A stretch of DNA of 64,000 nucleotides from NCBI GenBank assembly GCA_003864495.1, contig ML133455.1, positions 1,178,001 to 1,242,000 on the forward strand, in the 5' to 3' direction. Numbering within the stretch: position 1 is the stretch's first letter; each line of letters opens with the position of its first letter. This stretch comes from Nemopilema nomurai. Lineage: Eukaryota; Cnidaria; Scyphozoa; Rhizostomeae; Rhizostomatidae. The position numbers and the translations under genes were made by a program. This document shows positions 5,075-50,726 of this stretch, piece by piece. Below the pieces are notes generated by a model that had not been told where the DNA came from, ran no database searches, and saw nothing but the letters and a program-made list of their open reading frames with translations.

Positions 5075-13709
<8,635 letters not shown>

Positions 13710-25061: not shown

Positions 25062-28000
25062 TTATACCAAAGTTGAAAGTTTCGATCTTCTTCTATCCTT
25101 TGAACTCTTTATAGAGCTTCCGGGGCCTTGATCGTTGGGCCGCTTAACGAGACCTTCGTCGGTTGAATCGGACGAGCGGCTGCGTCTTCCAGTCACTGCA
25201 TAGGCACTTTCGCTGCCTTGGCGGCCAACGGGTTGGTGCTTGGCTTCATCGTGAATGGGGCTTCCTGTGATAGCAAACGACGACCCTTCACTGATAAGCC
25301 GCGACCGACTACCGGTTACAGCAAAAGTACACCCGTCTTCAGATTCAACAACGGTGTCGCTGCTAGACAACTCGGATTCTGAAACACGTTCCTTGAAACT
25401 GCCTGTAACAGCAAAGACACTGCCGTCTTCTGATTCAGTGACTGTTTCTCCTTCGGAAAAATCCGACTCTGGCAGCGGACTACCAGCCACTGCGAAAGTA
25501 CATCCGTCTTCCACTGCGAGGCTATTTTGATGTGATTGTGACCTAAACGAGGCTCTGGGAGACACACTTGGGCTGCAAGTGATGGCAAAAGCACTACCAT
25601 CCTCGGATTCTGTGAAAGTCTCGGCAGCAGAGATGTCCGAATCTTCATGGCTGCTTACTTGTGACGGAGAAGCCCTCTGTCGCTTCATCACCACTCTCGG
25701 TATATCTCTGCTATGCCGCGAGCGGGACCTTCTGAATGGTGATCTCCCAACGCTCTTTACCTCCGCGTTCTCAATCTTATTCAACACGCCATTCACAGTC
25801 TCCGACTCATCATAGGACTGCCTTCCTTTTGAAAACAAATATGCCGATACCTTAGCATCTCCCTTCAACTCTTTCAAGTCATATGGTAGCACCTCCAGAG
25901 CCGAACTTTTTCTGACGTCATCAACATCTATAATTGTAGTTGTTTTTATTTCAATGGCGTTAAATTCTTGTGACTTTGGTCTTTTATTCTCCTGCAGCCT
26001 TTTTTGCCAGCCTTCATCTAGCAACTTCCTTCTCTTCACGGAGTCTTCATCCTTCTTCTTCTTAATAGCATCATTGCCATGCTTTTTGTCTTTAAAAATT
26101 TGAGGTATCTCTAAGGCCTTTACCTTACCCGCTCTCTCTTCTCTTTCTGGCCTAAACCCTCTTAAGCTCTCTCTATTTCTTCCGTCACCTGGAGTTTCGC
26201 TATGCAGTTGAGGAATGTAATTCACTTTAATGTCTACCTCTTGGCAAAGGATTGACTTACCACCCAGACGGCCACTTGGACGTTCACATGCCATTTTCTG
26301 GTACAGCACAGATATGCTCTTTACCTGAATGGGACGTAAATCAGGCACAATACCGAGTACAACTGCTGCCTTATTCAACATGCAGTCTTCCTCATTTGTA
26401 CCTACGATGCTCAGAGCTTCTGATTCTAAACCAACAGCTAATGCACGTGACTCAAAGAACCGCAAAGAAATGGCCTTCTTTTCGAATTTCATTGGACTTC
26501 TCAGCAGTAAATACTCCGTACAGTGTCTCGTTGGATGTGACTTCGAAGAAAACAAAATGTCACTTTCCAATGTAGGCTTGTGTTTTGTAACTCCATCACC
26601 TGAATCGAATTGGTTCTCTGTTATCACATTTTCACGCAAAATTTCTTCCCCTGGTATAGTACGATGTAGTGAGTCCAAGACAGGAGCACTTTCAGAAAAG
26701 CTCTCTTCGTCACATGTTATAACCTCGGGCACTAGGCTACGCAAAATAATCTGATCGGATGTTGGAATATCATAATCAGCATATCCCGAAGAACGCGGCT
26801 GGTAATCTTTCGCCGGCATAACAAACTCGACGCTTGATTCTTTTTTGTAAACGTCACTCGATGAAAAATCTCTTCCAAGCTTAAATGTCACTGTCCTTTC
26901 TTCGACTGCAATACACTGCCCTAGAATATCCATGGTTATTTCGGACGATTCCCTGCATGTGTACATGGGTCTACGAATGGCGTGGGCCATATGATCATCT
27001 AAATAGCAGACTGAGAGGTACTTGAAAGGATTCACACTTCTAGAAGTCTCCTGGAAAAATTCTAACGTATGCTCTCTTATCTCTGGTCTCTGATCTTCCT
27101 GCATCATACTCAAATACTCTTCCACTGTCATGTCCTCCGGTTTCTGATCTTCCTGCATGATACTCAAGTACTCTTCCACTGTCATATCTTTTGGATCCTG
27201 ATCTTCCTTCATCATGCTCAAGTACTCTTCCACTGTCATATCTTTTGGCTCCTGATCTTCCTTCGTCATGCTCAAGTACTCTTCCACTGTCATGTCCTCT
27301 GGTTTCTGATCATCATTCATCATACTCAAGTACTCCTCCACTGTCATATCTTTTGTTTCTTGATCATCCTTTATCATACTCAAATACTCTTCCACTGTTA
27401 TGTCCTCTGGTTTCTGATCATCCTTCATCATACTCAAGTACTCTTCCACTGTCATGTCCTCCGGTTTCTGATCTTCCTGCATCATACTCAAATACTCTTC
27501 CACTGTCATGTCCTCTGGTTTCTGATCTTCCTGCATCATGCTCAAGTACTCTTCTACTGTCATGTCCTCCGGTTTCTGATCTTCCTTCATCATACTCAAA
27601 TACTCTTCCACTGTCATGTTCTTTGGTTTCTGATCTTCCTGCATGATACTCAAATACTCTTCCACTGTCATGTTCTCCGGTTTCTGATCATCCTTCATCA
27701 TACTCAAGTACTCTTCCACTGTCATGTCCTCTGGTTTATGATCTTCCTGCATCATACTCAAATACTCTTCCACTGTCATGTCCTCTGGTTTCTGATCTTC
27801 CTGCATCATGCTCAAGTACTCTTCTACTGTCATGTCCTCCGGTTTCTGATCTTCCTTCATCATGCTCAAGTACTCTTCCACTGTCATCTCTTTTGGTTCT
27901 TGATCATCCTTCATCTTACTCAAATATTCTTCCACTGTCATGTCCTCTGGTTTCTGATCATCATTCATCATACTCAAATATTCTTCCACTGTCATGTCCT

Positions 28001-28894
28001 TCGGTTTCTGATCTTCCTGCATCATACTCAAATACTCTTCCACTGTCATGTCCTCTGGTTTCTGATCTTCCTGCATCATGCTCAAGTACTCTTCCACTGT
28101 CATGTCCTCTGGTTTATGATCTTCCTGCATCATACTCAAGTACTCTTCCACTGTCATGTCCTCTGGTTTATGATCTTCCTGCATCATACTCAAATACTCT
28201 TCCACTGTCATGTCCTCTGGTTTCTGATCTTCCTGCATCATGCTCAAGTACTCTTCTACTGTCATGTCCTCCGGTTTCTGATCTTCCTTCATCATGCTCA
28301 AGTACTCTTCCACTGTCATCTCTTTTGGTTCTTGATCATCCTTCATCTTACTCAAATACTCTTCCACTGTCATGTCCTCTGGTTTCTGATCATCATTCAT
28401 CATGCTCAAATACTCTTCCACTGTCATGTCCTCCGGTTTCTGATCTTCCTGCATGATACTCAAATACTCTTCAACTGTCATGTCCTCTGGTTTCTGATCA
28501 TCATTCATCATGCTCAAATACTCTTCCACTGTCAAGTCCTCCGGTTTCTGATCTTCCTTCATCATGCTCAAGTACTCTTCCACCGTCATATCTTGTGGCT
28601 TCTGATCTTCCTTCAACATGTTCAAATACACCACTTTAATTGGATGCCCTTCTACTGATACATTGGTTGTAAACGTATCAATTTCAGTCGTTTCAAGATT
28701 CTCAACAGATGCCGTATATCTATTGAGACCTTGCTGGCATATGTCTAAAATTTCGTGTGAGAATATATCACGAAGAATGTTTTCGCAAACATTATCAGCA
28801 AATTGGTTAACTCTCTTTGCTAATTGTTGGCCTTGAATATCTGTTTTTGATCCGTTTATGTCGTCGTCTTGGTCCAGTAGACGCTTCTCTTCAG
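25062..28894 (-). CDS. Gene B 3'-terminal exon: 28 x 18-aa repeat and serine-rich tail
   Basis: An intact frame of about 1,277 codons follows a good acceptor (TTTTTCTCCTAG|CTGAAG at 28894/28895) and ends with TAA at 25062-25064. It contains no ATG until inside the first repeat, so it is an internal start, not a gene start. Order from the N-terminus: about 90 residues with a helical segment (LAKRVNQFADNVCENILRDI), then 28 tandem 18-residue units of consensus DMTVEEYLSMMQEDQKPE, then about 330 unique residues, a Lys/Glu-rich segment (KDKKHGNDAIKKKKDE), an SR-rich part, and six copies of a motif like EDGSAFAVTGSP before a basic end (SSKDRRRSKLSTLV). I recognise no domain. The phase expected by this exon (one base carried in) does not match the two bases left by the exon at 30311, so a small exon may be missing. 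Confidence 0.75.
27085..28620 (-). repeat. 54-bp tandem repeat encoding 18-aa Y-L-S-M units (28 copies)
   Basis: I count 28 complete in-frame units, then one degenerate unit (QEDQRPEIREHTLEF). TVEEYLS is nearly invariant and the flanking positions vary (QED/KED/NDD/KDD; DMT/EMT/NMT). 23 units have Tyr-Leu-Ser-Met, three have YLSI and two YLSK. A block starting with an NDDQ...SKM unit, followed by KDDQEPKEM, KED, QED and QEDH units, occurs at copies 5-9 and again at 13-17, so about 8 units (432 bp) were duplicated together. Unlike the 573-bp array, this array has no frame break. Confidence 0.95.
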
Positions 28895-30310: not shown

Positions 30311-32069
30311 CCTGGCTTTTTCTCACTGTTCTCTGGCCCTTTTGTTGACTTGGTTTCGACATCAATTGCAACCTCTCTATAGGGCAACACGTTCACACCC
30401 CCAAATACCCAGGACCTGCGATTACTAACCGGGCGGTGACCAACACCAGTTAATTCAGCCAAACTTCCAAGAGATTTGGTCCGGCTCAGTTGCCGTACTT
30501 CTCGGAGCTCCCCCATACTTGAAGTACTGTATCTTTGCTCCTTCGCAGGACGAAATACATTAGTTGGACGCTGCCTTGCCACGCGCACATCGTCAAGCTC
30601 CACTTTTCTTTCAGACGCGGAACTCTGCCTGGAGCGCCTCTCCTGCAATACATCAACATAGTTGCGTTCAGCTCGAATGCGCCTCACTTCCCCAATCTCT
30701 TTCCTCCTCTCGTCTGTCTCGTTTGGATTCGGTTTCTTTGGCGTGTGACCAAAGCTCTCTCTAAGCTGTCTGACCATCGATAGCTCTCGTTCGATTTCAG
30801 CTTTTCTCTCCTTCGCAGCGCGCATAACGCTGCTCTCAGCCATGTCTTCTTGCGTACCTTGCTCCGATTCATTCAGCAACGAGGTATACCTGAAATCAAC
30901 ACCATCTTGCGTATGATCAGCTGATCGATCACGGATCAACTGCAACTCCCTCAACACTTCTTGCTTCCTCTGCTGTAATGAGCTTTCGAATCGAAAACTA
31001 TATTGAAAACTGGCCGAACCCATGCTTTGATTGATCATCTCCAACTCCTCTTCAAGCTTCGCGTACCTCGTGCTTATTCTTCCATCGACACTCGAGTCAT
31101 CAGTCGACTCAGAATCAAAGCTCATGCTCCTGCGAAGCTCTCGAACCACATCGAGCTCTTTGTCAACTTGAGCCCTGTGAGTTGAGCTAGCAATCGTCGA
31201 ACTTGCAACTGTGTCTACAAATATTTCGTCGCTTGAATCTGATTTGAATGAAGACACACGTTCACTTCGCCTTCCTTCAACGTCAGTGGCCGAACGATGC
31301 AGATCCGCATCCACGTTTTCCGTGGATCCAAAAGGCGACGTTCCGGTCAAAGACCCTCTCTCTCTTGCCTTTCTAACCAAAGAGATTTCCTCCTCTAACT
31401 CAGCACGTTTCAAACTTCGCCTTCTTGACCGCTCCTCAAACTCCAGCTCCCGCAAAGTGTTTTCCCGCATTTGCCTTACCAACTGCAGCTCCCTCCGTTT
31501 CTCTTGTTCCGAAATTCGCTGTGTCCTCCGTTTGCTTTCAGTATGCATGTTAGCATTAGTTCCCTTTCTTAAATTCCTAACATTTGCCAACTCCATATCA
31601 ACTAGTTGTGCCCGGGTTAATGGTTTAACGCGTCCTCTCCTTTCATTCATAGACATCCCTGGGATGCTAGCGATATCTGTAGAAACCGCCAAATGCCCTT
31701 GTTTCTTTGTTATCTTTTCTCTATTTGGTGTGCTTGAAGATAACAAATTTACGTAAGATTCAATCTTGTCTAGAGGAAAAAGACTTCCATCCAATTCGTT
31801 ATCTGACGGGACCGAGCATGAACTGGAACTGACAATCTGTGGTTCACAAGCATGCAAGCTATCCATCGTGGTTTCTCTCCAACTCGACTTTGTGTTATTA
31901 TTGCAAATCAACTCTTCGTCAGCTGAGAAAGACACAGTTAGAATGATGTCCTCTACAGCATCATCATTACCTATACCAAGTATTTCACATTCAATAGTCG
32001 TTCCATCTCTGACACAATCAAACTGGTCATCCCTAATCTTGAGGTCATCTTTACCTACAACCTCGCGAT
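30311..32069 (-). CDS. Gene B internal exon: repeated E-L-x-x-V-R motif
   Basis: An intact frame of 585 codons bounded by acceptor TTTATTGCAG|ATCGCG and donor CCAGG|GTACGT. Its entry phase (needs one base) matches the donor at 36063 (GAAAATG|GTAAGT), giving LDEN joined to DREVVGKDD. After an acidic start it is dominated by about ten copies of a charged helical motif of the form R-x-x-(I/L)-x-x-E-L-x-x-V-R-x-(L/M)-R, for example RRELQLVRQMREN, RAQVDKELDVVRELRRS and RKAEIERELSMVRQLRES. The motif is spaced irregularly, with serine-rich linkers such as SFDSESTDDSS. The pattern predicts short amphipathic, possibly coiled-coil helices. I do not recognise the family. Confidence 0.8.
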
Positions 32070-36062: not shown

Positions 36063-39000
36063 CATTTTCATCGAGAGACACAGCATCGTCAGCCAATATC
36101 CTCTGATCCGAGCCTTTGTTGTTCGCAGGCTGACTTTGCAATTCCACATCGCCAAAGGTACCAACGCTAGCCTCGGCGAAAGAAACAACCTCACAGACGG
36201 CGTAATCCTCGCAAACCTCAGAAGCAACAAGCAGCTCAGGCTCCTCTCTTAGCAGAACTTCCAAGCAGTGTGTCTTCATATCCTTAGCATGAGGACAAAA
36301 CGATTCTAGGCAGACTTCCGCTGGCTCAACAGAACATGCACCAAACACAAATGAATCTCCGTCCTTTGGATAGTCAGCATCAACAACCAGAGAATTATCA
36401 CCCGAAAGATAACTATCCAAAATGTCTCCTTCCTCTTCAACTTCCAATGAAGGTGCGGACGATTCGCTGTCTGTTTCGACTTCTTCGAGGTCTCGCAAAT
36501 CAAATTCAGTCGACTCTTCTACTGCAATATCAATGTCCTCAGAAATAACAGCTTTAGGCACCATGTCCAGGATGTCTTCTTCCTCTTCTTCTTCCAATGA
36601 AGGTGTGGACGATTCGCTGTCGGTTTCGACTTCTTCGAGGTCTCGCAAATCAAATTCAGTCGACTCTACTACTGCGATTTCAATCTCCTCAGAAATAACA
36701 GCTTCAGGCTCCATGTCCAGGATGTCTGTTTCCTCTTCTTCTTCCAATAAAGGTGTGGACGATTCGCTGTCTGTTTCGACTTCTTCGAGGTCTCGCAAAT
36801 CAAATTCAGTCGACTCTACTACTGCGATGACAATGTCCTCAGAAATAACAGCTTCAGGCTCCATGTCCAGGATGTCTCTTTCCTCTTCTTCTTCCAATGA
36901 AGGTGTGGACGATTCGCTGTCTGTTTCGACTTCTTCGAGGTCTCGCAAATCAAATTCAGTCGACTCTACTACAGTGATGTCAATGTCCTCAGAAATAACA
37001 GCTTCAGGCTCCATGTCCAGGATGTCTCTTTTCTCTTCTTCTTCCAATGAAGGTGTGGACGATTCGCTGTCTGTTTCGACTTCCTCGAGGTCTCGCAAAT
37101 CAAATTCAGTCGACTCTACTACTGCGATGTCAATGTCCTCAGAAATAACAGCTTCAGGCTCCATGTCCAGGATGTCTTCTTCCTCTTCTTCTTCCAATGA
37201 AGGTGCGGACGATTCGCTGTCTGTTTCGACTTCTTCGAGGTCTCGCAAATCAAATTCAGTCGACTCTTCTACTGCAATGTCAATGTCCTCAGAAATAACA
37301 GCTTTAGGCACCATGTCCAGGATGTCTTCTTCCACTTCTTCTTCCAATGAAGGTGTGGACGATTCGCTGTCGGTTTCGACTTCTTCGAGGTCTCGCAAAT
37401 CGAATTCAGTCGACTCTACTACTGCCGCGTCAATGTCCTCAGAAATTACAGCTTCAGGCTCCATGTCGCCAATGTCAAGAGTCACTCTGACCATTGGAAG
37501 AGCAGACCCGCCGTCATCGTCGTCATCGACACCGTCTTCACTGTCTGTAATGCTCACAGGTTGCAGTCTCAGCGGCTGTACCGAAAAGCGCTCTTCTTCT
37601 GCCGTTATTTCGCTCAGTTGCGGCTCTTTTTCGTCTCTAGATCCTCTGAAGATTCGTTTTATCCGTCCTGTAACTCTCCCAGAAATGGTCCTGACGAGAC
37701 CACCTTGTGGGATTGTTTCTTCTTCAACGCTCTCGATTTTGTAGTCCGGAGATGTTTCCCTGCCTTTCAACTCTGAGAGAGGATCATCTTCATGTTCTTC
37801 TGACTGCACGATTTTCTCTCTGAAAACAACCCTTCTGGGGACGACTTCTGTGGAGAAAGTTTCAAAAGTCGGCTCCTCGTCGTCTTTGTCCAGAATGTCT
37901 TCTTTCTCTTCTTCTTCCAATGATGGTGCGGACGATTCGCTGTCTGTTTCGACTTCTTCGAGGTCTCGCAAATCGAATTCAGTCGACTCTACTACTGCCG
38001 CGTCAATGTCCTCAGAAATTACAGCTTCAGGCTCCATGTCGCCAATGTCAAGAGTCACTCTGACCATTGGAAGAGCAGACCCGCCGTCATCGTCGTCATC
38101 GACACGGTCTTCACTGTCTGTAATGCTCACAGGTTGCAGTCTCAGCGGCTGTACCGAAAAGCGCTCTTCTTCTGCCGTTATTTCGCTCAGTTGCGGCTCT
38201 TTTTCGTCTCTAGATCCTCTGAAGATTCGTTTTATCCGTCCTGTAACTCTCCCAGAAATGGTCCTGACGAGACCACCTTGTGGGATTGTTTCTTCTTCAA
38301 CGCTCTCGATTTTGTAGTCCGGAGATGTTTCCCTGCCTTTCAACTCTGAGAGAGGATCATCTTCATGTTCTTCTGACTGCACGATTTTCTCTCTGAAAAC
38401 AACCCTTCTGGGGACGACTTCTGTGGAGAAAGTTTCAAAAGTCGGCTCCTCGTCGTCTTTGTCCAGAATGTCTTCTCTTCTTCTTCCAATGATGGTGCGG
38501 ACGATTCGCTGTCTGTTTCGACTTCTTCGAGGTCTCGCAAATCGAATTCAGTCGACTCTACTACTGCCGCGTCAATGTCCTCAGAAATTACAGCTTCAGG
38601 CTCCATGTCGCCAATGTCAAGAGTCACTCTGACCATTGGAAGAGCAGACCCGCCGTCATCGTCGTCATCGACACGGTCTTCACTGTCTGTAATGCTCACA
38701 GGTTGCAGTCTCAGCGGCTGTACCGAAAAGCGCTCTTCTTCTGCCGTTATTTCGCTCAGTTGCGGCTCTTTTTCGTCTCTAGATCCTCTGAAGATTCGTT
38801 TTATCCGTCCTGTAACTCTCCCAGAAATGGTCCTGACGAGACCACCTTGTGGGATTGTTTCTTCTTCAACGCTCTCGATTTTGTAGTCCGGAGATGTTTC
38901 CCTGCCTTTCAACTCTGAGAGAGGATCATCTTCATGTTCTTCTGACTGCACGATTTTCTCTCTGAAAACAACCCTTCTGGGGACGACTTCTGTGGAGAAA

Positions 39001-42000
39001 GTTTCAAAAGTCGGCTCCTCGTCGTCTTTGTCCAGAATGTCTTCTTTCTCTTCTTCTTCCAATGATGGTGCGGACGATTCGCTGTCTGTTTCGACTTCTT
39101 CGAGGTCTCGCAAATCGAATTCAGTCGACTCTACTACTGCCGCGTCAATGTCCTCAGAAATTACAGCTTCAGGCTCCATGTCGCCAATGTCAAGAGTCAC
39201 TCTGACCATTGGAAGAGCAGACCCGCCGTCATCGTCGTCATCGACACGGTCTTCACTGTCTGTAATGCTCACAGGTTGCAGTCTCAGCGGCTGTACCGAA
39301 AAGCGCTCTTCTTCTGCCGTTATTTCGCTCAGTTGCGGCTCTTTTTCGTCTCTAGATCCTCTGAAGATTCGTTTTATCCGTCCTGTAACTCTCCCAGAAA
39401 TGGTCCTGACGAGACCACCTTGTGGGATTGTTTCTTCTTCAACGCTCTCGATTTTGTAGTCCGGAGATGTTTCCCTGCCTTTCAACTCTGAGAGAGGATC
39501 ATCTTCATGTTCTTCTGACTGCACGATTTTCTCTCTGAAAAACAACCCTTCTGGGGACGACTTCTGTGGAGAAAGTTTCAAAAGTCGGCTCCTCGTCGTC
39601 TTTGTCCAGAATGTCTTCTTTCTCTTCTTCTTCCAATGATGGTGCGGACGATTCGCTGTCTGTTCGACTTCTTCGAGGTCTCGCAAATCGAATTCAGTGA
39701 CTCTACTACTGCCGCGTCAATGTCCTCAGAAATTACAGCTTCAGGCTCCATGTCGCCAATGTCAAGAGTCACTCTGACCATTGGAAGAGCAGACCCGCCG
39801 TCATCGTCGTCATCGACACGGTCTTCACTGTCTGTAATGCTCACAGGTTGCAGTCTCAGCGGCTGTACCGAAAAGCGCTCTTCTTCTGCCGTTATTTCGC
39901 TCAGTTGCGGCTCTTTTTCGTCTCTAGATCCTCTGAAGATTCGTTTTATCCGTCCTGTAACTCTCCCAGAAATGGTCCTGACGAGACCACCTTGTGGGAT
40001 TGTTTCTTCTTCAACGCTCTCGATTTTGTAGTCCGGAGATGTTTCCCTGCCTTTCAACTCTGAGAGAGGATCATCTTCAATGTTCTTTTCTGCTGCACGA
40101 TTTTCTCTCTGAAAACAACCCTTCTGGGGACGACTTCTGTGGAGAAAGTTTCAAAAGTCGGCTCCTCGTCGTCTTTGTCCAGAATGTCTTCTTTCTCTTC
40201 TTCTTCCAATGATGGTGCGGACGATTCGCTGTCTGTTTCGACTTCTTCGAGGTCTCGCAAATCGAATTCAGTCGACTCTACTACTGCCGCGTCAATGTCC
40301 TCAGAAATTACAGCTTCAGGCTCCATGTCGCCAATGTCAAGAGTCACTCTGACCATTGGAAGAGCAGACCCGCCGTCATCGTCGTCATCGACACGGTCTT
40401 CACTGTCTGTAATGCTCACAGGTTGCAGTCTCAGCGGCTGTACCGAAAAGCGCTCTTCTTCTGCCGTTATTTCGCTCAGTTGCGGCTCTTTTTCGTCTCT
40501 AGATCCTCTGAAGATTCGTTTTATCCGTCCTGTAACTCTCCCAGAAATGGTCCTGACGAGACCACCTTGTGGGATTGTTTCTTCTTCAACGCTCTCGATT
40601 TTGTAGTCCGGAGATGTTTCCCTGCCTTTCAACTCTGAGAGAGGATCATCTTCATGTTCTTCTGACTGCACGATTTTCTCTCTGAAAACAACCCTTCTGG
40701 GGACGACTTCTGTGGAGAAAGTTTCAAAAGTCGGCTCCTCGTCGTCTTTGTCCAGAATGTCTTCTTTCTCTTCTTCTTCCAATGAATGGTGCGGACGATT
40801 CGCTGTCTGTTTCGACTTCTTCGAGGTCTCGCAAATCGAATTCAGTCGACTCTACTACTGCCGCGTCAATGTCCTCAGAAATTACAGCTTCAGGCTCCAT
40901 GTCGCCAATGTCAAAGTCACTCTGACCATTGGAAGAGCAGACCCGCCGTCATCGTCGTCATCGACACGGTCTTCACTGTCTGTAATGCTCACAGGTTGCA
41001 GTCTCAGCGGCTGTACCGAAAAGCGCTCTTCTTCTGCCGTTATTTCGCTCAGTTGCGGCTCTTTTTCGTCTCTAGATCCTCTGAAGATTCGTTTTATCCG
41101 TCCTGTAACTCTCCCAGAAATGGTCCTGACGAGACCACCTTGTGGGATTGTTTCTTCTTCAACGCTCTCGATTTTGTAGTCCGGAGATGTTTCCCTGCCT
41201 TTCAACTCTGAGAGAGGATCATCTTCATGTTCTTCTGACTGCACGATTTTCTCTTGAAAACAACCCTTCTGGGGACGACTTCTGTGGAGAAAGTTTCAAA
41301 AGTCGGCTCCTCGTCGTCTTTGTCCATGTCTTCTTTCTTTCTTCTTCCAATGATGGTGCGGACGATTCGCTGTCTGTTTCGACTTCTTCGAGGTCTCGCA
41401 AATCGAATTCAGTCGACTCTACTACTGCCGCGTCAATGTCCTCAGAAATTACAGCTTCAGGCTCCATGTCGCCAATGTCAAGAGTCACTCTGACCATTGG
41501 AAGAGCAGACCCGCCGTCATCGTCGTCATCGACACGGTCTTCACTGTCTGTAATGCTCACAGGTTGCAGTCTCAGCGGCTGTACCGAAAAGCGCTCTTCT
41601 TCTGCCGTTATTTCGCTCAGTTGCGGCTCTTTTCGTCTCTAGATCCTCTGAAGATTCGTTTTATCCGTCCTGTAACTCTCCCAGAAATGGTCCTGACGAG
41701 ACCACCTTGTGGGATTGTTTCTTCTTCAACGCTCTCGATTTTGTAGTCCGGAGATGTTTCCCTGCCTTTCAACTCTGAGAGAGGATCATCTTCATGTTCT
41801 TCTGACTGCACGATTTTCTCTGAAAACAACCCTTCTGGGGACGACTTCTGTGGAGAAAGTTTCAAAAGTCGGCTCCTCGTCGTCTTGTCCAGAATGTCTT
41901 CTTTCTCTTCTTCTTCAATGATGGTGCGGACGATTCGCTGTCTGTTTCGACTTCTTCGAGGTCTCGCAAATCGAATTCAGTCGACTCTACTACTGCGTCA

Positions 42001-45000
42001 ATGTCCTCAGAAATTACAGCTTCAGGCTCCATGTCGCCAATGTCAAGGTCACTCTGACCATTGGAAGAGCAACCCGCCGTCATCGTCGTCATCGACACGG
42101 TCTTCACTGTCTGTAATGCTCACAGGTTGCAGTCTCAGCGGCTGTACCGAAAAGCGCTCTTCTTCTGCCGTTATTTCGCTCAGTTGCGGCTCTTTTTCGT
42201 CTCTAGATCCTCTGAAGATTCGTTTTATCCGTCCTGTAACTCTCCCAGAAATGGTCCTGACGAGACCACCTTGTGGGATTGTTTCTTCTTCAACGCTCTC
42301 GATTTTGTAGTCCGGAGATGTTTCCCTGCCTTTCAACTCTGAGAGAGGATCATCTTCATGTTCTTCTGACTGCACGATTTTCTCTCTGAAAACAACCCTT
42401 CTGGGGACGACTTCTGTGGAGAAAGTTTCAAAAGTCGGCTCCTCGTCGTCTTTGTCCAGAATGTCTTCTTTCTCTTCTTCTTCCAATGATGGTGCGGACG
42501 ATTCGCTGTCTGTTTCGACTTCTTCGAGGTCTCGCAAATCGAATTCAGTCGACTCTACTACTGCCGCGTCAATGTCCTCAGAAATTACAGCTTCAGGCTC
42601 CATGTCGCCAATGTCAAGAGTCACTCTGACCATTGGAAGAGCAGACCCGCCGTCATCGTCGTCATCGACACGGTCTTCACTGTCTGTAATGCTCACAGGT
42701 TGCAGTCTCAGCGGCTGTACCGAAAAGCGCTCTTCTTCTGCCGTTATTTCGCTCAGTTGCGGCTCTTTTTCGTCTCTAGATCCTCTGAAGATTCGTTTTA
42801 TCCGTCCTGTAACTCTCCCAGAAATGGTCCTGACGAGACCACCTTGTGGGATTGTTTCTTCTTCAACGCTCTCGATTTTGTAGTCCGGAGATGTTTCCCT
42901 GCCTTTCAACTCTGAGAGAGGATCATCTTCATGTTCTTCTGACTGCACGATTTTCTCTCTGAAAACAACCCTTCTGGGGACGACTTCTGTGGAGAAAGTT
43001 TCAAAAGTCGGCTCCTCGTCGTCTTTGTCCAGAATGTCTTCTTTCTCTTCTTCTTCCAATGATGGTGCGGACGATTCGCTGTCTGTTTCGACTTCTTCGA
43101 GGTCTCGCAAATCGAATTCAGTCGACTCTACTACTGCCGCGTCAATGTCCTCAGAAATTACAGCTTCAGGCTCCATGTCGCCAATGTCAAGAGTCACTCT
43201 GACCATTGGAAGAGCAGACCCGCCGTCATCGTCGTCATCGACACGGTCTTCACTGTCTGTAATGCTCACAGGTTGCAGTCTCAGCGGCTGTACCGAAAAG
43301 CGCTCTTCTTCTGCCGTTATTTCGCTCAGTTGCGGCTCTTTTTCGTCTCTAGATCCTCTGAAGATTCGTTTTATCCGTCCTGTAACTCTCCCAGAAATGG
43401 TCCTGACGAGACCACCTTGTGGGATTGTTTCTTCTTCAACGCTCTCGATTTTGTAGTCCGGAGATGTTTCCCTGCCTTTCAACTCTGAGAGAGGATCATC
43501 TTCATGTTCTTCTGACTGCACGATTTTCTCTCTGAAAACAACCCTTCTGGGGACGACTTCTGTGGAGAAAGTTTCAAAAGTCGGCTCCTCGTCGTCTTTG
43601 TCCAGAATGTCTTCTTCTCTTCTTCTTCCAATGATGGTGCGGACGATTCGCTGTCTGTTTCGACTTCTTCGAGGTCTCGCAAATCGAATTCAGTCGACTC
43701 TACTACTGCCGCGTCAATGTCCTCAGAAATTACAGCTTCAGGCTCCATGTCGCCAATGTCAAGAGTCACTCTGACCATTGGAAGAGCAGACCCGCCGTCA
43801 TCGTCGTCATCGACACGGTCTTCACTGTCTGTAATGCTCACAGGTTGCAGTCTCAGCGGCTGTACCGAAAAGCGCTCTTCTTCTGCCGTTATTTCGCTCA
43901 GTTGCGGCTCTTTTTCGTCTCTAGATCCTCTGAAGATTCGTTTTATCCGTCCTGTAACTCTCCCAGAAATGGTCCTGACGAGACCACCTTGTGGGATTGT
44001 TTCTTCTTCAACGCTCTCGATTTTGTAGTCCGGAGATGTTTCCCTGCCTTTCAACTCTGAGAGAGGATCATCTTCATGTTCTTCTGACTGCACGATTTTC
44101 TCTCTGAAAACAACCCTTCTGGGGACGACTTCTGTGGAGAAAGTTTCAAAAGTCGGCTCCTCGTCGTCTTTGTCCAGAATGTCTTCTTCTCTTCTTCTTC
44201 CAATGATGGTGCGGACGATTCGCTGTCTGTTTCGACTTCTTCGAGGTCTCGCAAATCGAATTCAGTCGACTCTACTACTGCCGCGTCAATGTCCTCAGAA
44301 ATTACAGCTTCAGGCTCCATGTCGCCAATGTCAAGAGTCACTCTGACCATTGGAAGAGCAGACCCGCCGTCATCGTCGTCATCGACACGGTCTTCACTGT
44401 CTGTAATGCTCACAGGTTGCAGTCTCAGCGGCTGTACCGAAAAGCGCTCTTCTTCTGCCGTTATTTCGCTCAGTTGCGGCTCTTTTTCGTCTCTAGATCC
44501 TCTGAAGATTCGTTTTATCCGTCCTGTAACTCTCCCAGAAATGGTCCTGACGAGACCACCTTGTGGGATTGTTTCTTCTTCAACGCTCTCGATTTTGTAG
44601 TCCGGAGATGTTTCCCTGCCTTTCAACTCTGAGAGAGGATCATCTTCATGTTCTTCTGACTGCACGATTTTCTCTCTGAAAACAACCCTTCTGGGGACGA
44701 CTTCTGTGGAGAAAGTTTCAAAAGTCGGCTCCTCGTCGTCTTTGTCCAGAATGTCTTCTTTCTCTTCTTCTTCCAATGATGGTGCGGACGATTCGCTGTC
44801 TGTTTCGACTTCTTCGAGGTCTCGCAAATCGAATTCAGTCGACTCTACTACTGCCGCGTCAATGTCCTCAGAAATTACAGCTTCAGGCTCCATGTCGCCA
44901 ATGTCAAGAGTCACTCTGACCATTGGAAGAGCAGACCCGCCGTCATCGTCGTCATCGACACGGTCTTCACTGTCTGTAATGCTCACAGGTTGCAGTCTCA

Positions 45001-48000
45001 GCGGCTGTACCGAAAAGCGCTCTTCTTCTGCCGTTATTTCGCTCAGTTGCGGCTCTTTTTCGTCTCTAGATCCTCTGAAGATTCGTTTTATCCGTCCTGT
45101 AACTCTCCAGAAATGGTCCTGACGAGACCACCTTGTGGGATTGTTTCTTCTTCAACGCTCTCGATTTTGTAGTCCGGAGATGTTTCCCTGCCTTTCAACT
45201 CTGAGAGAGGATCATCTTCATGTTCTTCTGACTGCACGATTTTCTCTGAAAACAACCCTTCTGGGGACGACTTCTGTGGAGAAAGTTTCAAAAGTCGGCT
45301 CCTCGTCGTCTTTGTCCAGAATGTCTTCTTTCTCTTCTTCTTCCAATGATGGTGCGGACGATTCGCTGTCTGTTTCGACTTCTTCGAGGTCTCGCAAATC
45401 GAATTCAGTCGACTCTACCTACTGCCGCGTCAATGTCCTCAGAAATTACAGCTTCAGGCTCCATGTCGCCAATGTCAAGAGTCACTCTGACCATTGGAAG
45501 AGCAGCCCGCCGTCATCGTCGTCATCGACACGGTCTTCACTGTCTGTAATGCTCACAGGTTGCAGTCTCAGCGGCTGTACCGAAAAGCGCTCTTCTTCTG
45601 CCGTTATTTCGCTCAGTTGCGGCTCTTTTTCGTCTCTAGATCCTCTGAAGATTCGTTTTATCCGTCCTGTAACTCTCCCAGAAATGGTCCTGACGAGACC
45701 ACCTTGTGGGATTGTTTCTTCTTCAACGCTCTCGATTTTGTAGTCCGGAGATGTTTCCCTGCCTTTCAACTCTGAGAGAGGATCATCTTCATGTTCTTCT
45801 GACTGCACGATTTTCTCTGAAAACAACCCTTCTGGGGACGACTTCTGTGGAGAAAGTTTCAAAAGTCGGCTCCTCGTCGTCTTTGTCCAGAATGTCTTCT
45901 TTCTCTTCTTCCAATGATGGTGCGGACGATTCGCTGTCTGTTTCGACTTCTTCGAGGTCTCGCAAATCGAATTCAGTCGACTCTACTACTGCCGCGTCAA
46001 TGTCCTCAGAAATTACAGCTTCAGGCTCCATGTCGCCAATGTCAAGAGTCACTCTGACCATTGGAAGAGCAGACCCGCCGTCATCGTCGTCATCGACACG
46101 GTCTTCACTGTCTGTAATGCTCACAGGTTGCAGTCTCAGCGGCTGTACCGAAAAGCGCTCTTCTTCTGCCGTTATTTCGCTCAGTTGCGGCTCTTTTTCG
46201 TCTCTAGATCCTCTGAAGATTCGTTTTATCCGTCCTGTAACTCTCCCAGAAATGGTCCTGACGAGACCACCTTGTGGGATTGTTTCTTCTTCAACGCTCT
46301 CGATTTTGTAGTCCGGAGATGTTTCCCTGCCTTTCAACTCTGAGAGAGGATCATCTTCATGTTCTTCTGACTGCACGATTTTCTCTCTGAAAACAACCCT
46401 TCTGGGGACGACTTCTGTGGAGAAAGTTTCAAAAGTCGGCTCCTCGTCGTCTTTGTCCAGAATGTCTTCTTTCTTCTTCTTCCAATGATGGTGCGGACGA
46501 TTCGCTGTCTGTTTCGACTTCTTCGAGGTCTCGCAAATCGAATTCAGTCGACTCTACTACTGCCGCGTCAATGTCCTCAGAAATTACAGCTTCAGGCTCC
46601 ATGTCGCCAATGTCAAGAGTCACTCTGACCATTGGAAGAGCAGACCCGCCGTCATCGTCGTCATCGACACGGTCTTCACTGTCTGTAATGCTCACAGGTT
46701 GCAGTCTCAGCGGCTGTACCGAAAAGCGCTCTTCTTCTGCCGTTATTTCGCTCAGTTGCGGCTCTTTTTCGTCTCTAGATCCTCTGAAGATTCGTTTTAT
46801 CCGTCCTGTAACTCTCCCAGAAATGGTCCTGACGAGACCACCTTGTGGGATTGTTTCTTCTTCAACGCTCTCGATTTTGTAGTCCGGAGATGTTTCCCTG
46901 CCTTTCAACTCTGAGAGAGGATCATCTTCATGTTCTTCTGACTGCACGATTTTCTCTCTGAAAACAACCCTTCTGGGGACGACTTCTGTGGAGAAAGTTT
47001 CAAAAGTCGGCTCCTCGTCGTCTTTGTCCAGAATGTCTTCTTCTCTTCTTCTTCCAATGATGGTGCGGACGATTCGCTGTCTGTTTCGACTTCTTCGAGG
47101 TCTCGCAAATCGAATTCAGTCGACTCTACTACTGCGCGTCAATGTCCTCAGAAATTACAGCTTCAGGCTCCATGTCGCCAATGTCAAGAGTCACTCTGAC
47201 CATTGGAAGAGCAGACCCGCCGTCATCGTCGTCATCGACACGGTCTTCACTGTCTGTAATGCTCACAGGTTGCAGTCTCAGCGGCTGTACCGAAAAGCGC
47301 TCTTCTTCTGCCGTTATTTCGCTCAGTTGCGGCTCTTTTTCGTCTCTAGATCCTCTGAAGATTCGTTTTATCCGTCCTGTAACTCTCCCAGAAATGGTCC
47401 TGACGAGACCACCTTGTGGGATTGTTTCTTCTTCAACGCTCTCGATTTTGTAGTCCGGAGATGTTTCCCTGCCTTTCAACTCTGAGAGAGGATCATCTTC
47501 ATGTTCTTCTGACTGCACGATTTTCTCTCTGAAAACAACCCTTCTGGGGACGACTTCTGTGGAGAAAGTTTCAAAAGTCGGCTCCTCGTCGTCTTTGTCC
47601 AGAATGTCTTCTTTCTCTTCTTCTTCCAATGATGGTGCGGACGATTCGCTGTCTGTTTCGACTTCTTCGAGGTCTCGCAAATCGAATTCAGTCGACTCTA
47701 CTACTGCGTCAATGTCCTCAGAAATTACAGCTTCAGGCTCCATGTCGCCAATGTCAAGAGTCACTCTGACCATTGGAAGAGCAGACCCGCCGTCATCGTC
47801 GTCATCGACACGGTCTTCACTGTCTGTAATGCTCACAGGTTGCAGTCTCAGCGGCTGTACCGAAAAGCGCTCTTCTTCTGCCGTTATTTCGCTCAGTTGC
47901 GGCTCTTTTTCGTCTCTAGATCCTCTGAAGATTCGTTTTATCCGTCCTGTAACTCTCCCAGAAATGGTCCTGACGAGACCACCTTGTGGGATTGTTTCTT

Positions 48001-48800
48001 CTTCAACGCTCTCGATTTTGTAGTCCGGAGATGTTTCCCTGCCTTTCAACTCTGAGAGAGGATCATCTTCATGTTCTTCTGACTGCACGATTTTCTCTGA
48101 AAACAACCCTTCTGGGGACGACTTCTGTGGAGAAAGTTTCAAAAGTCGGCTCCTCGTCGTCTTTGTCCAGAATGTCTTCTTTCTCTTCTTCTTCCAATGA
48201 TGGTGCGGACGATTCGCTGTCTGTTTCGACTTCTTCGAGGTCTCGCAAATCGAATTCAGTCGACTCTACTACTGCCGCGTCAATGTCCTCAGAAATTACA
48301 GCTTCAGGCTCCATGTCGCCAATGTCAAGAGTCACTCTGACCATTGGAAGAGCAGACCCGCCGTCATCGTCGTCATCGACACGGTCTTCACTGTCTGTAA
48401 TGCTCACAGGTTGCAGTCTCAGCGGCTGTACCGAAAAGCGCTCTTCTTCTGCCGTTATTTCGCTCAGTTGCGGCTCTTTTTCGTCTCTAGATCCTCTGAA
48501 TTCGTTTTATCCGTCCTGTAACTCTCCCAGAAATGGTCCTGACGAGACCACCTTGTGGGATTGTTTCTTCTTCAACGCTCTCGATTTTGTAGTCCGGAGA
48601 TGTTTCCCTGCCTTTCAACTCTGAGAGAGGATCATCTTCATGTTCTTCTGACTGCACGATTTTCTCTCTGAAAACAACCCTTCTGGGGACCACTTCTGTT
48701 GAAATGGTTTCAAGAGTATCGTCTTTGTCGGTCTCGAAATCTTCTTTCTTACCTTGCATGGTAGAGTCGGTTGAATTTGTATGATTCATATCTTTTTCAC
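36063..48800 (-). CDS. Gene B giant exon: 191-aa and 50-aa repeat region
   Basis: This is the continuation of the exon that starts at 50726. From high to low coordinate it has one divergent lead copy (GKKEDFETDKDDTLETISTE), about 20 units of 191 residues, a run of 50-residue units, and a unique 120-residue acidic tail with several Cys (VCLESFCPHAKDMKTHC). It ends at a consensus donor GAAAATG|GTAAGT (36063/36062). The 191-residue unit has, in order: an acidic stretch, SPDYKIESVEEETIPQGG, a basic segment SGRVTGRIKRIFRGSRDEK, AEEERFSVQPLRLQPVSI, DRVDDDDDGG, and the E/D/S-rich DLRDLEEVETDSESS part. As assembled the frame is broken in many copies, so no continuous protein is readable. The lowest 2.4 kb (36007-38382) is one open frame. 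The protein is probably disordered and very acidic. The family is unknown. Confidence 0.7.
36410..37450 (-). repeat. 150-bp tandem repeat, about seven copies of a 50-aa unit
   Basis: The word agaaataacagc recurs exactly every 150 bp, at 36541, 36691, 36841, 36991, 37141 and 37291, and as agaaattacagc at 37441. The 50-residue unit (DMEPEAVISEDIDIAVVEST... ending EEEEDIL) corresponds to the C-terminal part of the 191-residue unit, so a piece of the larger unit was amplified on its own. The copies differ by substitutions (SSTP versus SSAP, EPE versus VPK), not indels, and the frame stays open. Confidence 0.95.
37320..48720 (-). repeat. 573-bp tandem repeat, about 20 copies
   Basis: A fixed landmark (caggttgcagtctcagcgg) recurs near 37,557, 38,130, 38,699, 39,272 and so on to about 48,410, giving 20 copies with a mean spacing of about 571 bp. 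Full copies are 573 bp. Apart from one base near 37,533 versus 38,106 (C/G, Gly/Arg codon), the lower-coordinate unit and the others are almost identical. Most differences are small indels, for example an extra A near 39,541, a missing T near 39,664, an extra A near 40,785, shortened CTCT near 41,252 and a missing T near 41,631. These indels break the frame repeatedly. Confidence 0.95.
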
Positions 48801-50726
48801 CCAGCATTTCATTTCTTGTTCCGTTTTAGAAGTTGGTAGGATAATTTTATCCTGATGAAAATTTGTTCGTACTTGATCATACTCCATCGGGATAATCCAT
48901 TCATCTTGGACAGTCGTCGCTTCCTTATCTTGGTAGTCGAATCGCCTCCAGTCTCCCTTAGCCGCTTCTTTTTGGTTATTATCCATCTGTTCGCTTACTG
49001 ATTGCTGCCTTATTGTATTCAACAAGAGAGGCTGTATAGAGATGTATTCTTCCTCTGCTCGGCAATCCGGCTCAATACCTTGCTGGCTGAACTTTTTGTC
49101 GGGACCCGGAAAGAGAGATCGAAAAGCGTTAGAAAACCTCGACCGTAAGGAACTTGTTGTTTGCTTGTTTAAACGCTCTTCCTCCAAAATGAACACTTTG
49201 ACGTTGTCTCTGTTCTCATCCGTGTTATTATTGAAGATCTGGACTATGTCCTCCATATGGTTGTCGAATGGAACAGGTCGGTCAAACTTTAGCTCTTTGT
49301 CAATATATACAGTTGACGCTGGTTCGCGCTTCTGCGTGCCATTTTTCAGACGGGTTTTCGGTCCTTCTTTCTTTGGCGTGCTTGTTTGAACAGCAGAAGT
49401 ATTACCATTTTGCTCAAGAAAATTCTGAACGATGACATAATCTTCTTTTGTCGTGGTCTTCTCTCCGATGTCTATATCAACAGCGACAGGCTTCGGAAAA
49501 TGAAGAATCTCTTCACACGACTTAGAAAAATCACCAGACAATGTGAGTTTAGATTTTATTCCCGGGTTGCTTTCATTCGTGAAAACAATTTCGTATCCTG
49601 TATTCTGATTTTTTCCGTTTCCATCGCGCGATTCGTTATCGGTAAACACATCTAAATCTTCATATGAGATTGACGCGGTTTTGATCTTTGTATAGTGACG
49701 TTCCTTCGGCCTCGTTCTTCTTGGCTTGATCTTCTTCACCGGTTCTTCGTCAACAAACTCGATACTGTATTCTGTGCTCCTTTGGAAGGAATCCTCTCCA
49801 TAATTAGAGCTACCACGCCTGGAACCGGTGCCACTTAAACTTCCACAGCTAACTGATAAAAGGCTGGGGGTTTTGACTTCAAAAGAGCGTGTGAAGTCGG
49901 CGGATAATGAAAGCGTTCTCAGTTCTCTGTTCTCCTTCTCATCGATGAAGGAGATCTGGTATCCTTCTTCTGATGCAGCATAGCTGTGGAAGAACTCCGA
50001 GCCTTCCTCATCTTCCTCTTCATCAGTGACTAAAGACAATCTGCTATCATTTTTGTCCACATATATACGGAAAGATTCCTCATGGTTCAGTTCTTCAGCG
50101 ACCATCTTCGTTTCGAACTCCTTCTCAAATTCGGTAATCTGTATTCTTCTTCCTTTTGAGAACAGCTTAAAAACAACACTAAAAGGGCAAATGTAATACC
50201 AATATCTTGTCCTGCAAATCAAAACTCTGACCTGTCTTCTTAGCAAATATATTGCAAAACAGCAATAATTAATCCATTCTTCGCGCCTTATCAGAGCACA
50301 CTTTTCAGCGTCTCGGCGCTTTTTACTAAGAAAGACAGTCACTGAACTGGTTACCGTCCTTTGGCGACGGAAATGCCGCGAGTTGCATTGGCAAAGAATC
50401 AATACAGACCCACCAGTGGAAGAATCCTGCAAATCCTCTTCATCTGACAAAAAGTCAATTACAACATACTCGAGATCATTATCACTTTCGACTTCTTCCT
50501 CTTCTTGAATGTAGTTTTTTGATATCTCCGTTGCCTGTCCGATGGATGCTTCAAACTCCCGACTATGTTCGTAAATCGGGCCGACATCAGATCCGACTCC
50601 ATCGTCATCTACATATGAAGACGATACACTACTCGGCCTGATCTTCAATGATCCAGTTAAGTCGGCTGTGATTTCGATGTGCAGGTCGTGAGTTCGGTTG
50701 ATTGCAGCTTTGTATTCATCTGCCAT
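48786..50726 (-). CDS. Gene B N-terminal region (start of giant repeat protein)
   Basis: Starts at ATG 50726 (MADEYKAAINRTHD), preceded in frame by TGA 15 bases upstream, and runs 646 codons to a TGA that is probably artificial. One A missing at about 48,810 (gaaatgaaatg) would join it to the repeat frame below. Features: acidic region, three related segments of the form G-Y-x-I-x-F-x-(D/N)-E...L-S-x-D-F-(T/S)-x-S (GYQISFIDEKEN with SLSADFTRSFE; a partial YSIEFVDEE; GYEIVFTNES with TLSGDFSKSCEEIL), TSTPKK, and a basic segment LRSRFSNAFRSLFPGPDKK followed by EEEYISIQPLLL, which resembles the 191-aa module. Residues about 105-190 are basic, aromatic and Cys-rich, unlike the flanks, and are probably an unspliced intron (GTGGGT donor at 50413). 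The same motifs in the same order occur in gene A. Family unknown. Confidence 0.75.
   Translation of the reverse strand: MADEYKAAINRTHDLHIEITADLTGSLKIRPSSVSSSYVDDDGVGSDVGPIYEHSREFEASIGQATEISKNYIQEEEEVESDNDLEYVVIDFLSDEEDLQDSSTGGSVLILCQCNSRHFRRQRTVTSSVTVFLSKKRRDAEKCALIRREEWINYCCFAIYLLRRQVRVLICRTRYWYYICPFSVVFKLFSKGRRIQITEFEKEFETKMVAEELNHEESFRIYVDKNDSRLSLVTDEEEDEEGSEFFHSYAASEEGYQISFIDEKENRELRTLSLSADFTRSFEVKTPSLLSVSCGSLSGTGSRRGSSNYGEDSFQRSTEYSIEFVDEEPVKKIKPRRTRPKERHYTKIKTASISYEDLDVFTDNESRDGNGKNQNTGYEIVFTNESNPGIKSKLTLSGDFSKSCEEILHFPKPVAVDIDIGEKTTTKEDYVIVQNFLEQNGNTSAVQTSTPKKEGPKTRLKNGTQKREPASTVYIDKELKFDRPVPFDNHMEDIVQIFNNNTDENRDNVKVFILEEERLNKQTTSSLRSRFSNAFRSLFPGPDKKFSQQGIEPDCRAEEEYISIQPLLLNTIRQQSVSEQMDNNQKEAAKGDWRRFDYQDKEATTVQDEWIIPMEYDQVRTNFHQDKIILPTSKTEQEMKCWVKKI

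What the first reader, a model, noticed from the sequence alone, without database searches (positions are those of the whole stretch)
25062..50726. A giant, unrecognised protein gene built from four separately amplified modules
Splice phase links a ~14.7-kb 5' exon (50726-36063) to the exon 32069-30311, and strand, openness and lack of internal starts link the exon 28894-25062. The predicted product, about 6,700 residues, contains 191-aa (x20), 50-aa (x7), ~16-aa E-L-x-x-V-R (x10) and 18-aa Y-L-S-M (x28) repeats plus six FAVTGS-like repeats. Independent amplification of so many modules in one gene is unusual, and I recognise none of them.
Basis: partly seen in the sequence, partly recalled or inferred. 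Interest (0 to 1): 0.75.

Follow-up and report, generated by a model that had tools for sequence, protein, structure and literature searches.

The report
Giant repeat protein of a jellyfish
This looks like a real but uncharacterised jellyfish gene for a very long, probably unfolded protein built from tandem-repeat arrays; its long first exon and its last exon belong together, but the middle exon cannot simply be inserted between them as proposed, and the long exon is broken in this assembly, perhaps by sequencing errors.

Summary
The repeats are real. The main joint holds: the exon with the 191-aa array splices in phase to the terminal exon 28894-25062, and two predicted relatives, Rhopilema esculentum LOC135694323 isoform X1 (2724 aa) and P0019, carry the same order and C-terminus. 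Four corrections. (1) The 14.7-kb exon is not open as assembled: 19 complete units show 0 substitutions but 33 indels, 29 frameshifting; I read these as long-read consensus errors, though some recur at the same places. (2) Exon 32069-30311 is in phase with the array exon but not with the last exon; spliced in, it meets TGA at once, and it is absent from both relatives. (3) The 50-aa module is the end of the 191-aa unit, so not independent. (4) A tandem paralogue, annotated as its own gene in Rhopilema, lies at 63516-60478. Units are far more alike within than between lineages. Copy numbers differ between the window and a 46-kb contig, probably the other haplotype. Best reading: a disordered, multivalent scaffold whose C-terminus, invariant in 11 of 11 sequences at four positions, looks like a PDZ ligand. 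Function is inferred, not shown.

The parts
48789..50726 (-). 5' non-array part of the long exon (ATG at 50726), with YxIxFxDE...LSLSADFTRS-type motifs; membership in the giant gene likely but not proven
   Evidence: Open frame; homologous to the paralogue at 63516-60478 (hhalign probability 97.4, E 1.3e-11; protein search of the own genome E 9.3e-4). The frame changes between 48825 and 48789, just before the array. Not in P0018 or P0019, whose models start inside the array.
37468..48740 (-). Array of 573-nt (191-aa) units, 20 copies; limits approximate
   Evidence: 19 complete units: 0 substitutions, 33 indels, 29 frameshifting. Related units in P0018 and P0019.
36422..37467 (-). 50-aa mini-array, 7 copies counting the end of the last 191-aa unit; 5 copies counted the same way in contig C195
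   Evidence: counted by eye in the translations.
36063..36421 (-). Unique tail of the array exon, ending in splice donor AATG|GTAAGT (phase 1)
   Evidence: a 45-column stretch aligns with the Rhopilema tail, score 63 against a maximum of 48 in 500 shuffles; the donor is also in C195.
30311..32069 (-). Middle exon with nine ELxxVR-like motifs; alternative or differently joined, not in frame with 28894-25062
   Evidence: 596-codon stop-to-stop frame; splice sites; direct joint to 28894 gives TGA at once; found in the own genome only here and in C195.
28701..28862 (-). Helix just before the YL array (contains LAKRVNQFADNVCENILRDI)
   Evidence: AlphaFold2 model residues 12-65, pLDDT means 84-89 in residues 21-50; counterpart in relatives is variable.
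25062..28894 (-). Terminal exon of the giant gene (acceptor phase 1, stop codon 25062-25064)
   Evidence: 8 relatives at E <= 1 among 7987 candidates scored; joined to 191-aa-type units in P0018 and P0019; dN 0.014, dS 0.041 against C195 after the YL array.
27081..28629 (-). 18-aa DMTVEEYLSMM repeat array, 28 copies (19 in C195); the four repeats modelled are each one short helix
25179..25598 (-). Region of six EDGSxFAVTGS-type repeats; limits approximate
   Evidence: conserved in relatives.
25065..25082 (-). C-terminal end KLSTLV; K-L-x-T-x-V invariant in 11 of 11 sequences; class I PDZ-ligand-like (motif recalled)
60478..63516 (-). Neighbouring paralogous gene with one coding exon here, orthologue of Rhopilema LOC135694324; not part of the giant gene
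   Evidence: 8 relatives align from near the start to the end, P0009 (1072 aa) with the same start and a matching C-terminus. Equal 'longest contig' lengths pair P0009 with P0018, P0010 with P0001 and P0013 with P0002.

Best explanation
The minus strand carries two tandem paralogous genes of a jellyfish. The giant one has a long exon (probably with the 5' part, then 191-aa array, 50-aa mini-array, tail) spliced directly to a terminal exon (helix, 18-aa YL array, conserved low-confidence region, FAVTGS repeats, PDZ-ligand-like C-terminus). Shown: the sequence features, the in-phase joint and its match to two predicted relatives, and conservation of the terminal exon and its last residues. Inferred: (1) the frameshifts in the array are assembly errors and the cell reads it through; (2) the arrays change length by unequal exchange and are homogenised; (3) the product is an intracellular, mostly disordered multivalent scaffold: the C-terminus docks on a PDZ protein, the chain of 19-42 near-identical short YL helices presents many copies of one docking site, and each 191-aa unit adds a basic-hydrophobic stretch (SGRVTGRIKRIFRGSR) that could touch acidic membrane or calmodulin; copy number sets reach and valency; (4) inclusion of the middle exon ends the protein early and removes the YL/PDZ half.
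For: Joint: donor 36063 and acceptor 28894 both phase 1 (by hand); P0018 runs from 191-aa-type units through a related tail into the YL exon; P0019 has units, a long acidic stretch, then the YL exon. Constraint: terminal exon open in both contigs; after the YL array 18 synonymous and 22 non-synonymous differences, dN/dS about 0.35; 30-51% identity to ten relatives, K-L-x-T-x-V invariant. Error reading: 0 substitutions against 33 indels in 19 units, 28 of 33 deletions; 12 against 43 in 22 units of C195, 40 of 43 deletions. Homogenisation: P0018 units 90-99% alike, window to P0018 66-68%, window to P0019 38%, P0018 to P0019 36-37%; one fixed and one nearly fixed difference between window and C195 units. 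Disorder: mean pLDDT 31.3 over the last 666 residues; one helix in each of 4 of 4 YL repeats modelled, at low to middling pLDDT (block means 45-61). Basic stretch net charge +6, +6, +5 in one unit each of window, P0018, P0019.
Against: No transcript was examined; P0018 and P0019 are predicted proteins and both start inside the array, so the 5' part is not shown to belong. Some array indels recur: in C195 three single-base deletions occur in 10, 8 and 7 of 22 units, in the window one 2-base deletion in 4 of 19, which inherited indels spread by homogenisation would also give; and the unique coding stretch after the YL array shows 0 gaps in 2004 nt between the contigs, so errors would have to be confined to the repeat. 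Low pLDDT with 11 sequences shows no predicted fold, not disorder as such. No signal-peptide or localisation test was run. No partner is known; PDZ, membrane and calmodulin binding are motif readings, and the moment of the basic stretch is not clearly above shuffles (0.09-0.16 as high in the three units). C195 could be a duplicated locus. Copy numbers in near-identical assembled arrays may be wrong.
Confidence: 0.55

Rival explanations
1. The three large exons belong to three different genes or transcripts; only strand and closeness unite them.
For: The middle exon is out of phase with the last exon and missing from P0018 and P0019; the neighbouring homologous exon 63516-60478 is annotated as its own gene in Rhopilema.
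Against: 191-aa-type units and terminal exon are one protein in P0018 and P0019, with a related tail at the joint in P0018. So the rival holds at most for the middle exon and possibly for the 5' part.
Confidence: 0.12
2. The array is decayed in this animal: the frameshifts are real and the gene is dead or split here.
For: Only 6 of 19 window units and 2 of 22 C195 units are exactly 573 nt; 29 and 41 frameshifting indels; some indels recur at the same place in many units, as inherited indels would. The unique coding stretch after the YL array has no gaps between the contigs.
Against: Zero substitutions with 33 indels in 19 units is an unlikely course of decay; 17 of 33 and 37 of 43 indels are single-base deletions, and recurrent sites can also be systematic consensus errors; the unit consensus is 191 open codons; the terminal exon is open and constrained; related units exist in two other lineages.
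Confidence: 0.13
3. The giant protein is an A-kinase anchoring protein: the helix before the YL array docks PKA regulatory dimers and the C-terminus ties it to a PDZ scaffold.
For: A helix is predicted with pLDDT 84-89 in its core; 8 of 12 sequences match an RII-anchor consensus (recalled) before the array, against 1 match in 7815 residues of the paralogue family; window and C195 helices are strongly amphipathic, 0.001-0.002 of shuffles as high.
Against: The window's own helix meets 5 of 6 positions, as do C195 and P0006; the strict match of P0019 lies elsewhere; 1-18% of shuffled pre-array segments match by chance, depending on the sequence; 4 further matches occur in the post-array parts. 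The moment is not above shuffles at 0.05 in 8 of 9 relatives tested.
Confidence: 0.12
4. A spring-like or cortical filler protein whose length matters more than binding, comparable in role to titin PEVK or AHNAK (recalled).
For: No predicted fold, acidic repeats, copy numbers differing between the two contigs: YL 28 and 19, 50-aa 7 and 5, 191-aa 20 copies and at least 22 complete units.
Against: The stretch after the YL array and the last six residues are conserved, which length alone would not need.
Confidence: 0.2

Closest known systems
Rhopilema esculentum LOC135694323 isoform X1 (P0018) and predicted protein Seg2340.11 (P0019; Aurelia by recall of the name style)
   Same: Same order of 191-aa-type units, YL repeats, FAVTGS repeats and K-L-x-T-x-V end; taken as orthologues.
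   Different: Fewer units (8 MEPEVVI starts in P0018), no 50-aa mini-array in P0018 and no ELxxVR exon in either (read); both models start inside the array.
Rhopilema LOC135694324 family (P0009-P0016), the tandem paralogue
   Same: Shares the YEITFTDE...LSLSSDL module with the 5' part of the long exon.
   Different: About 800-1070 residues with its own conserved start region and end, no arrays like those of the giant gene.
Giant repeat proteins such as AHNAK, giant ankyrins, titin PEVK (recalled)
   Same: Very large exons, long repeats, disorder.
   Different: No ankyrin, ZU5, Ig, PDZ or other credible Pfam domain in the exons scanned; no sequence relation seen.
Tandem-repeat-rich cnidarian proteins (Nematostella survey, PMC2805694; abstract and outline seen)
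   Same: Tandem-repeat coding units, few shared with other proteomes; repeats often readable on more than one frame.
   Different: Units there are mostly 5-20 residues; this gene adds a 191-aa unit shared between species.

Membership tests
LOC135694323 orthologue group | Terminal exon with YL array, RRSRSRxSRDxPRVV-type stretch, FAVTGS repeats, K-L-x-T-x-V end | tested here: met
LOC135694323 orthologue group | 191-aa-type units joined in frame to the terminal exon | tested here: met
   Phases; P0018 and P0019. No transcript seen.
LOC135694323 orthologue group | One uninterrupted reading frame through the array | tested here: not met
   Frameshifts in the assembly; read as errors, which needs accurate reads.
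A-kinase anchoring proteins | Amphipathic RII/RI-binding helix | tested here: inconclusive
   8 of 12 strict, window 5 of 6 positions; moments above shuffles at 0.05 in 3 of 11.
A-kinase anchoring proteins | Binding to PKA regulatory subunits | not testable with these tools
   Needs a binding assay.
PDZ-ligand proteins | C-terminal S/T-x-hydrophobic end, conserved | tested here: met
   11 of 11 end K-L-x-T-x-V; binding not tested.
Giant ankyrin, titin, AHNAK, plakin | Their Pfam domains | tested here: not met
   In the exons scanned, families above their cut-off had their best stretch on the YL repeats only and are judged spurious.

The most novel reading that the evidence does not exclude
A jellyfish scaffold whose valency and reach are set by three coding arrays that differ in copy number between two alleles of one animal and are homogenised allele by allele, with an alternative exon that swaps the YL/PDZ half for a short ELxxVR end: a natural length-and-valency series in one gene.
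Probability: 0.25. Interest if true: 0.6.

Novelty: new member of a known kind. Interest (0 to 1): 0.42.

Why it matters
It appears to be an undescribed protein family (by the searches) with a repeat anatomy shared between jellyfish lineages and an invariant C-terminus, and a plain case of coding arrays that assemblies break and gene models cut short (both predicted relatives start inside the array). If the two contigs are alleles, it also lets one test how coding arrays are homogenised.

Tried and rejected
Pfam hits to VPg, FF domain, IF4E, Phage_int_SAM_4, DUF6240, SUS_N (above cut-off) and weaker ones on the terminal exon, and VPg and IF4E on P0018, were rejected: their best stretches lie on the YL repeats. 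Solved-structure searches gave nothing credible: profile of the alignment best E 0.021 (Calsenilin), three array units 0 hits at E <= 1, middle exon best E 0.86. No Rfam family at gathering score, no tRNA. The region after the YL array gave mean pLDDT 31, so no fold search was run. The YxxM (PI3K-like, recalled) reading of the YL repeat was dropped: it is in 23 of 28 window copies and in many copies of P0001, P0003, P0005, P0007 and P0018, but in none of P0002, P0004, P0006, P0008 and P0019. A link of the 191-aa unit to the basic stretch of the paralogue is suggestive only: hhalign score 24.6 to the paralogue profile (no shuffle control) and 28.5 to the 5' part, with 20 shuffles of the 5' part up to 21.7. 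Treating 63516-60478 and C89:1246279-1248456 as further exons of the giant gene was my first idea; it was dropped for the former after and is untested for the latter. The middle exon has 5 substitutions to C195, all non-synonymous, and 3 nt of indel in two places: too few to prove constraint. Count: the reference was the commonest 573-nt window unit; the 3'-most array copy and the first partial unit lie outside the 19 complete units, and the 3'-most copy does differ in some residues (translation). Literature: no paper holds LOC135694323 or Seg2340 with Aurelia and genome; the listings showed no title on this gene.
Full report
Where it is. The window is C89:1178001-1242000 of a 212.9-Mb, 226-contig genome. 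The named relatives found are Rhopilema esculentum proteins, a scyphozoan of the order Rhizostomeae. The genome size resembles Nemopilema nomurai (213 Mb, 255 scaffolds, PacBio reads assembled with FALCON; PMC6441219, passages seen), but the species was not identified. The stretch from about 0.2 to 48.7 kb is covered a second time by C195 (46,187 bp), collinear and reversed, 97.6% identical over its longest block of 18.8 kb, with one end inside the array. I read it as the other haplotype; a duplicated locus is not excluded.

The observation. The named repeats are there. The long exon is not open: stop-to-stop pieces change frame again and again between about 48.8 and 37.3 kb. Against a 573-nt reference unit, 19 complete window units carry 0 substitutions and 33 indels (28 deletions, 5 insertions; 29 frameshifting); 22 C195 units carry 12 substitutions and 43 indels (40 deletions, 3 insertions; 41 frameshifting); 6 of 19 and 2 of 22 are exactly 573 nt. 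Indels without substitutions are what unpolished long-read consensus leaves in a repeat; that is my inference, since no reads were at hand. Two facts cut against it: in C195 three single-base deletions recur in 10, 8 and 7 of 22 units and in the window one 2-base deletion recurs in 4 of 19, and the unique coding stretch after the YL array has no gap in 2004 nt between the contigs. Systematic errors confined to a repeat would do both, but so could real indels spread by homogenisation. The unit consensus is 191 open codons.

The modules are not independent. The 50-aa repeat is the last ~50 residues of the 191-aa unit repeated alone, 7 copies in the window and 5 in C195, each count including the end of the last full unit (by eye). 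In the own genome, the 96 listed matches to three units all lie in this locus or in C195 (79 of 85 candidates scored).

Splicing. The donor at 36063 and the acceptor at 28894 are both phase 1, so the array exon joins the terminal exon directly in frame. P0018 (Rhopilema LOC135694323 isoform X1) has this joint: units, a tail of which 45 columns align to ours (score 63; maximum 48 in 500 shuffles), then the YL exon. P0019 has units, a long acidic stretch and the YL exon (Aurelia by recall of the locus style). The middle exon is in phase with the array exon at 32069 but ends in phase 2 at 30311; joined to 28894 it meets TGA at the next codon. I do not find it in P0018 or P0019 (by reading). It is a stop-to-stop frame of 596 codons with nine ELxxVR-like motifs, 99.5% identical in C195 against 96.4% for the intron before it, but its 5 substitutions are all non-synonymous and two indels total 3 nt. 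An alternative end of the protein, an unseen small exon after it, or a nested gene all remain possible.

The 5' side. The 5' part (50726-48789) is homologous to the exon 63525-60481 (hhalign probability 97.4, E 1.3e-11). That upstream exon matches a protein annotated as a gene of its own, Rhopilema LOC135694324; eight relatives align from near its start to its end, though starts and last residues vary between them. Whether the 5' part belongs to the giant gene is open: the frame changes at 48825-48789, C195 does not reach it, and P0018 and P0019 start inside the array. A third open frame beyond the window, C89:1246279-1248456, has a faint resemblance (hhalign E 0.0021 to the 5' part, 0.18 to the paralogue profile, 0.66 to the unit).

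Conservation and change. A search with the last 666 residues found eight relatives at E <= 1 among 7987 candidates scored, and two more with a longer carrier. Over that part the ten are 30-51% identical to the window, and K-L-x-T-x-V at the end is invariant in 11 of 11. Between window and C195 the part after the YL array has 18 synonymous and 22 non-synonymous differences, dN 0.014, dS 0.041. YL copies: 28 in the window and 19 in C195; 19-42 in ten relatives by strict pattern. Units are 90-99% alike within P0018 (15 pairs), 66-68% between P0018 and the window, 38% between P0019 and the window, 36-37% between P0018 and P0019 (two window, six P0018 and one P0019 unit met the pattern). Window and C195 units differ at position 380 wherever it can be read and at 476 with one exception in C195, window units with a deletion there being unreadable; both change the residue. 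This is the mark of concerted evolution.

What it may do. The last 666 residues gave a model of mean pLDDT 31. In 172 residues before and in the YL array, one helix is predicted with confidence (84-89 in its core) and each of the four YL repeats modelled is one short helix at low to middling pLDDT. No credible Pfam or solved-structure relative was found. With no recognised domain, a conserved C-terminus that looks like a class I PDZ ligand (recalled motif) and many near-identical short helices, a multivalent intracellular scaffold is the likeliest role; I put that role itself near 0.4. No signal-peptide test was run. The helix could be a PKA anchor (AKAP helices are short amphipathic motifs in disordered proteins; PMC4516873, passages seen), but the test is inconclusive: 8 of 12 match the recalled consensus strictly, the window itself 5 of 6 positions, and 3 of 11 helices exceed shuffles at 0.05.

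Verdict. Tandem-repeat proteins are common in at least one cnidarian (PMC2805694, abstract and outline seen), so this is a striking new member of a known kind. On re-checking, one figure moved: the decayed-array rival rose from 0.10 to 0.13 for the recurrent indels.

Noticed in passing
15333-22323: Satellite array of a 178-bp unit, 39.4 copies at 97%; C195 appears to hold a shorter version in the matching place.
   Followed up: no
8845-13706, plus strand: Exons of a polo-like kinase gene: a protein kinase match and two POLO_box matches.
   Followed up: partly
C89:1246279-1248456 (L003:4279-6456, minus): Open frame of 726 aa upstream of the paralogue with SIEFLDE-type repeats, perhaps a third tandem relative; no Pfam match at E <= 0.01.
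   Followed up: partly
36413-37744 and 27066-28658, plus strand: Long antisense open frames over the 150-nt and 54-nt repeats, whose periods are multiples of three; read as by-products.
   Followed up: no
50420-50150, minus strand: Hydrophobic, Cys-containing stretch inside the acidic 5' part, with a similar-looking stretch in the frame at C89:1246279-1248456; may be an in-frame intron.
   Followed up: no
C89:1249935-1252570, plus strand (L003-L004): Three adjoining open frames that look like a hAT-type or ZMYM-like transposase (by recall, not tested).
   Followed up: no
C195:18271-20026 against window 30311-32069: Two indels totalling 3 nt put about 12 residues of the middle exon on another frame in one of the two contigs.
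   Followed up: no
C195:31382-37413 against window 9000-15000: In this 6-kb flank the contigs differ by 35 mismatches but 44 gap openings, more gap openings than in the other stretches compared.
   Followed up: no
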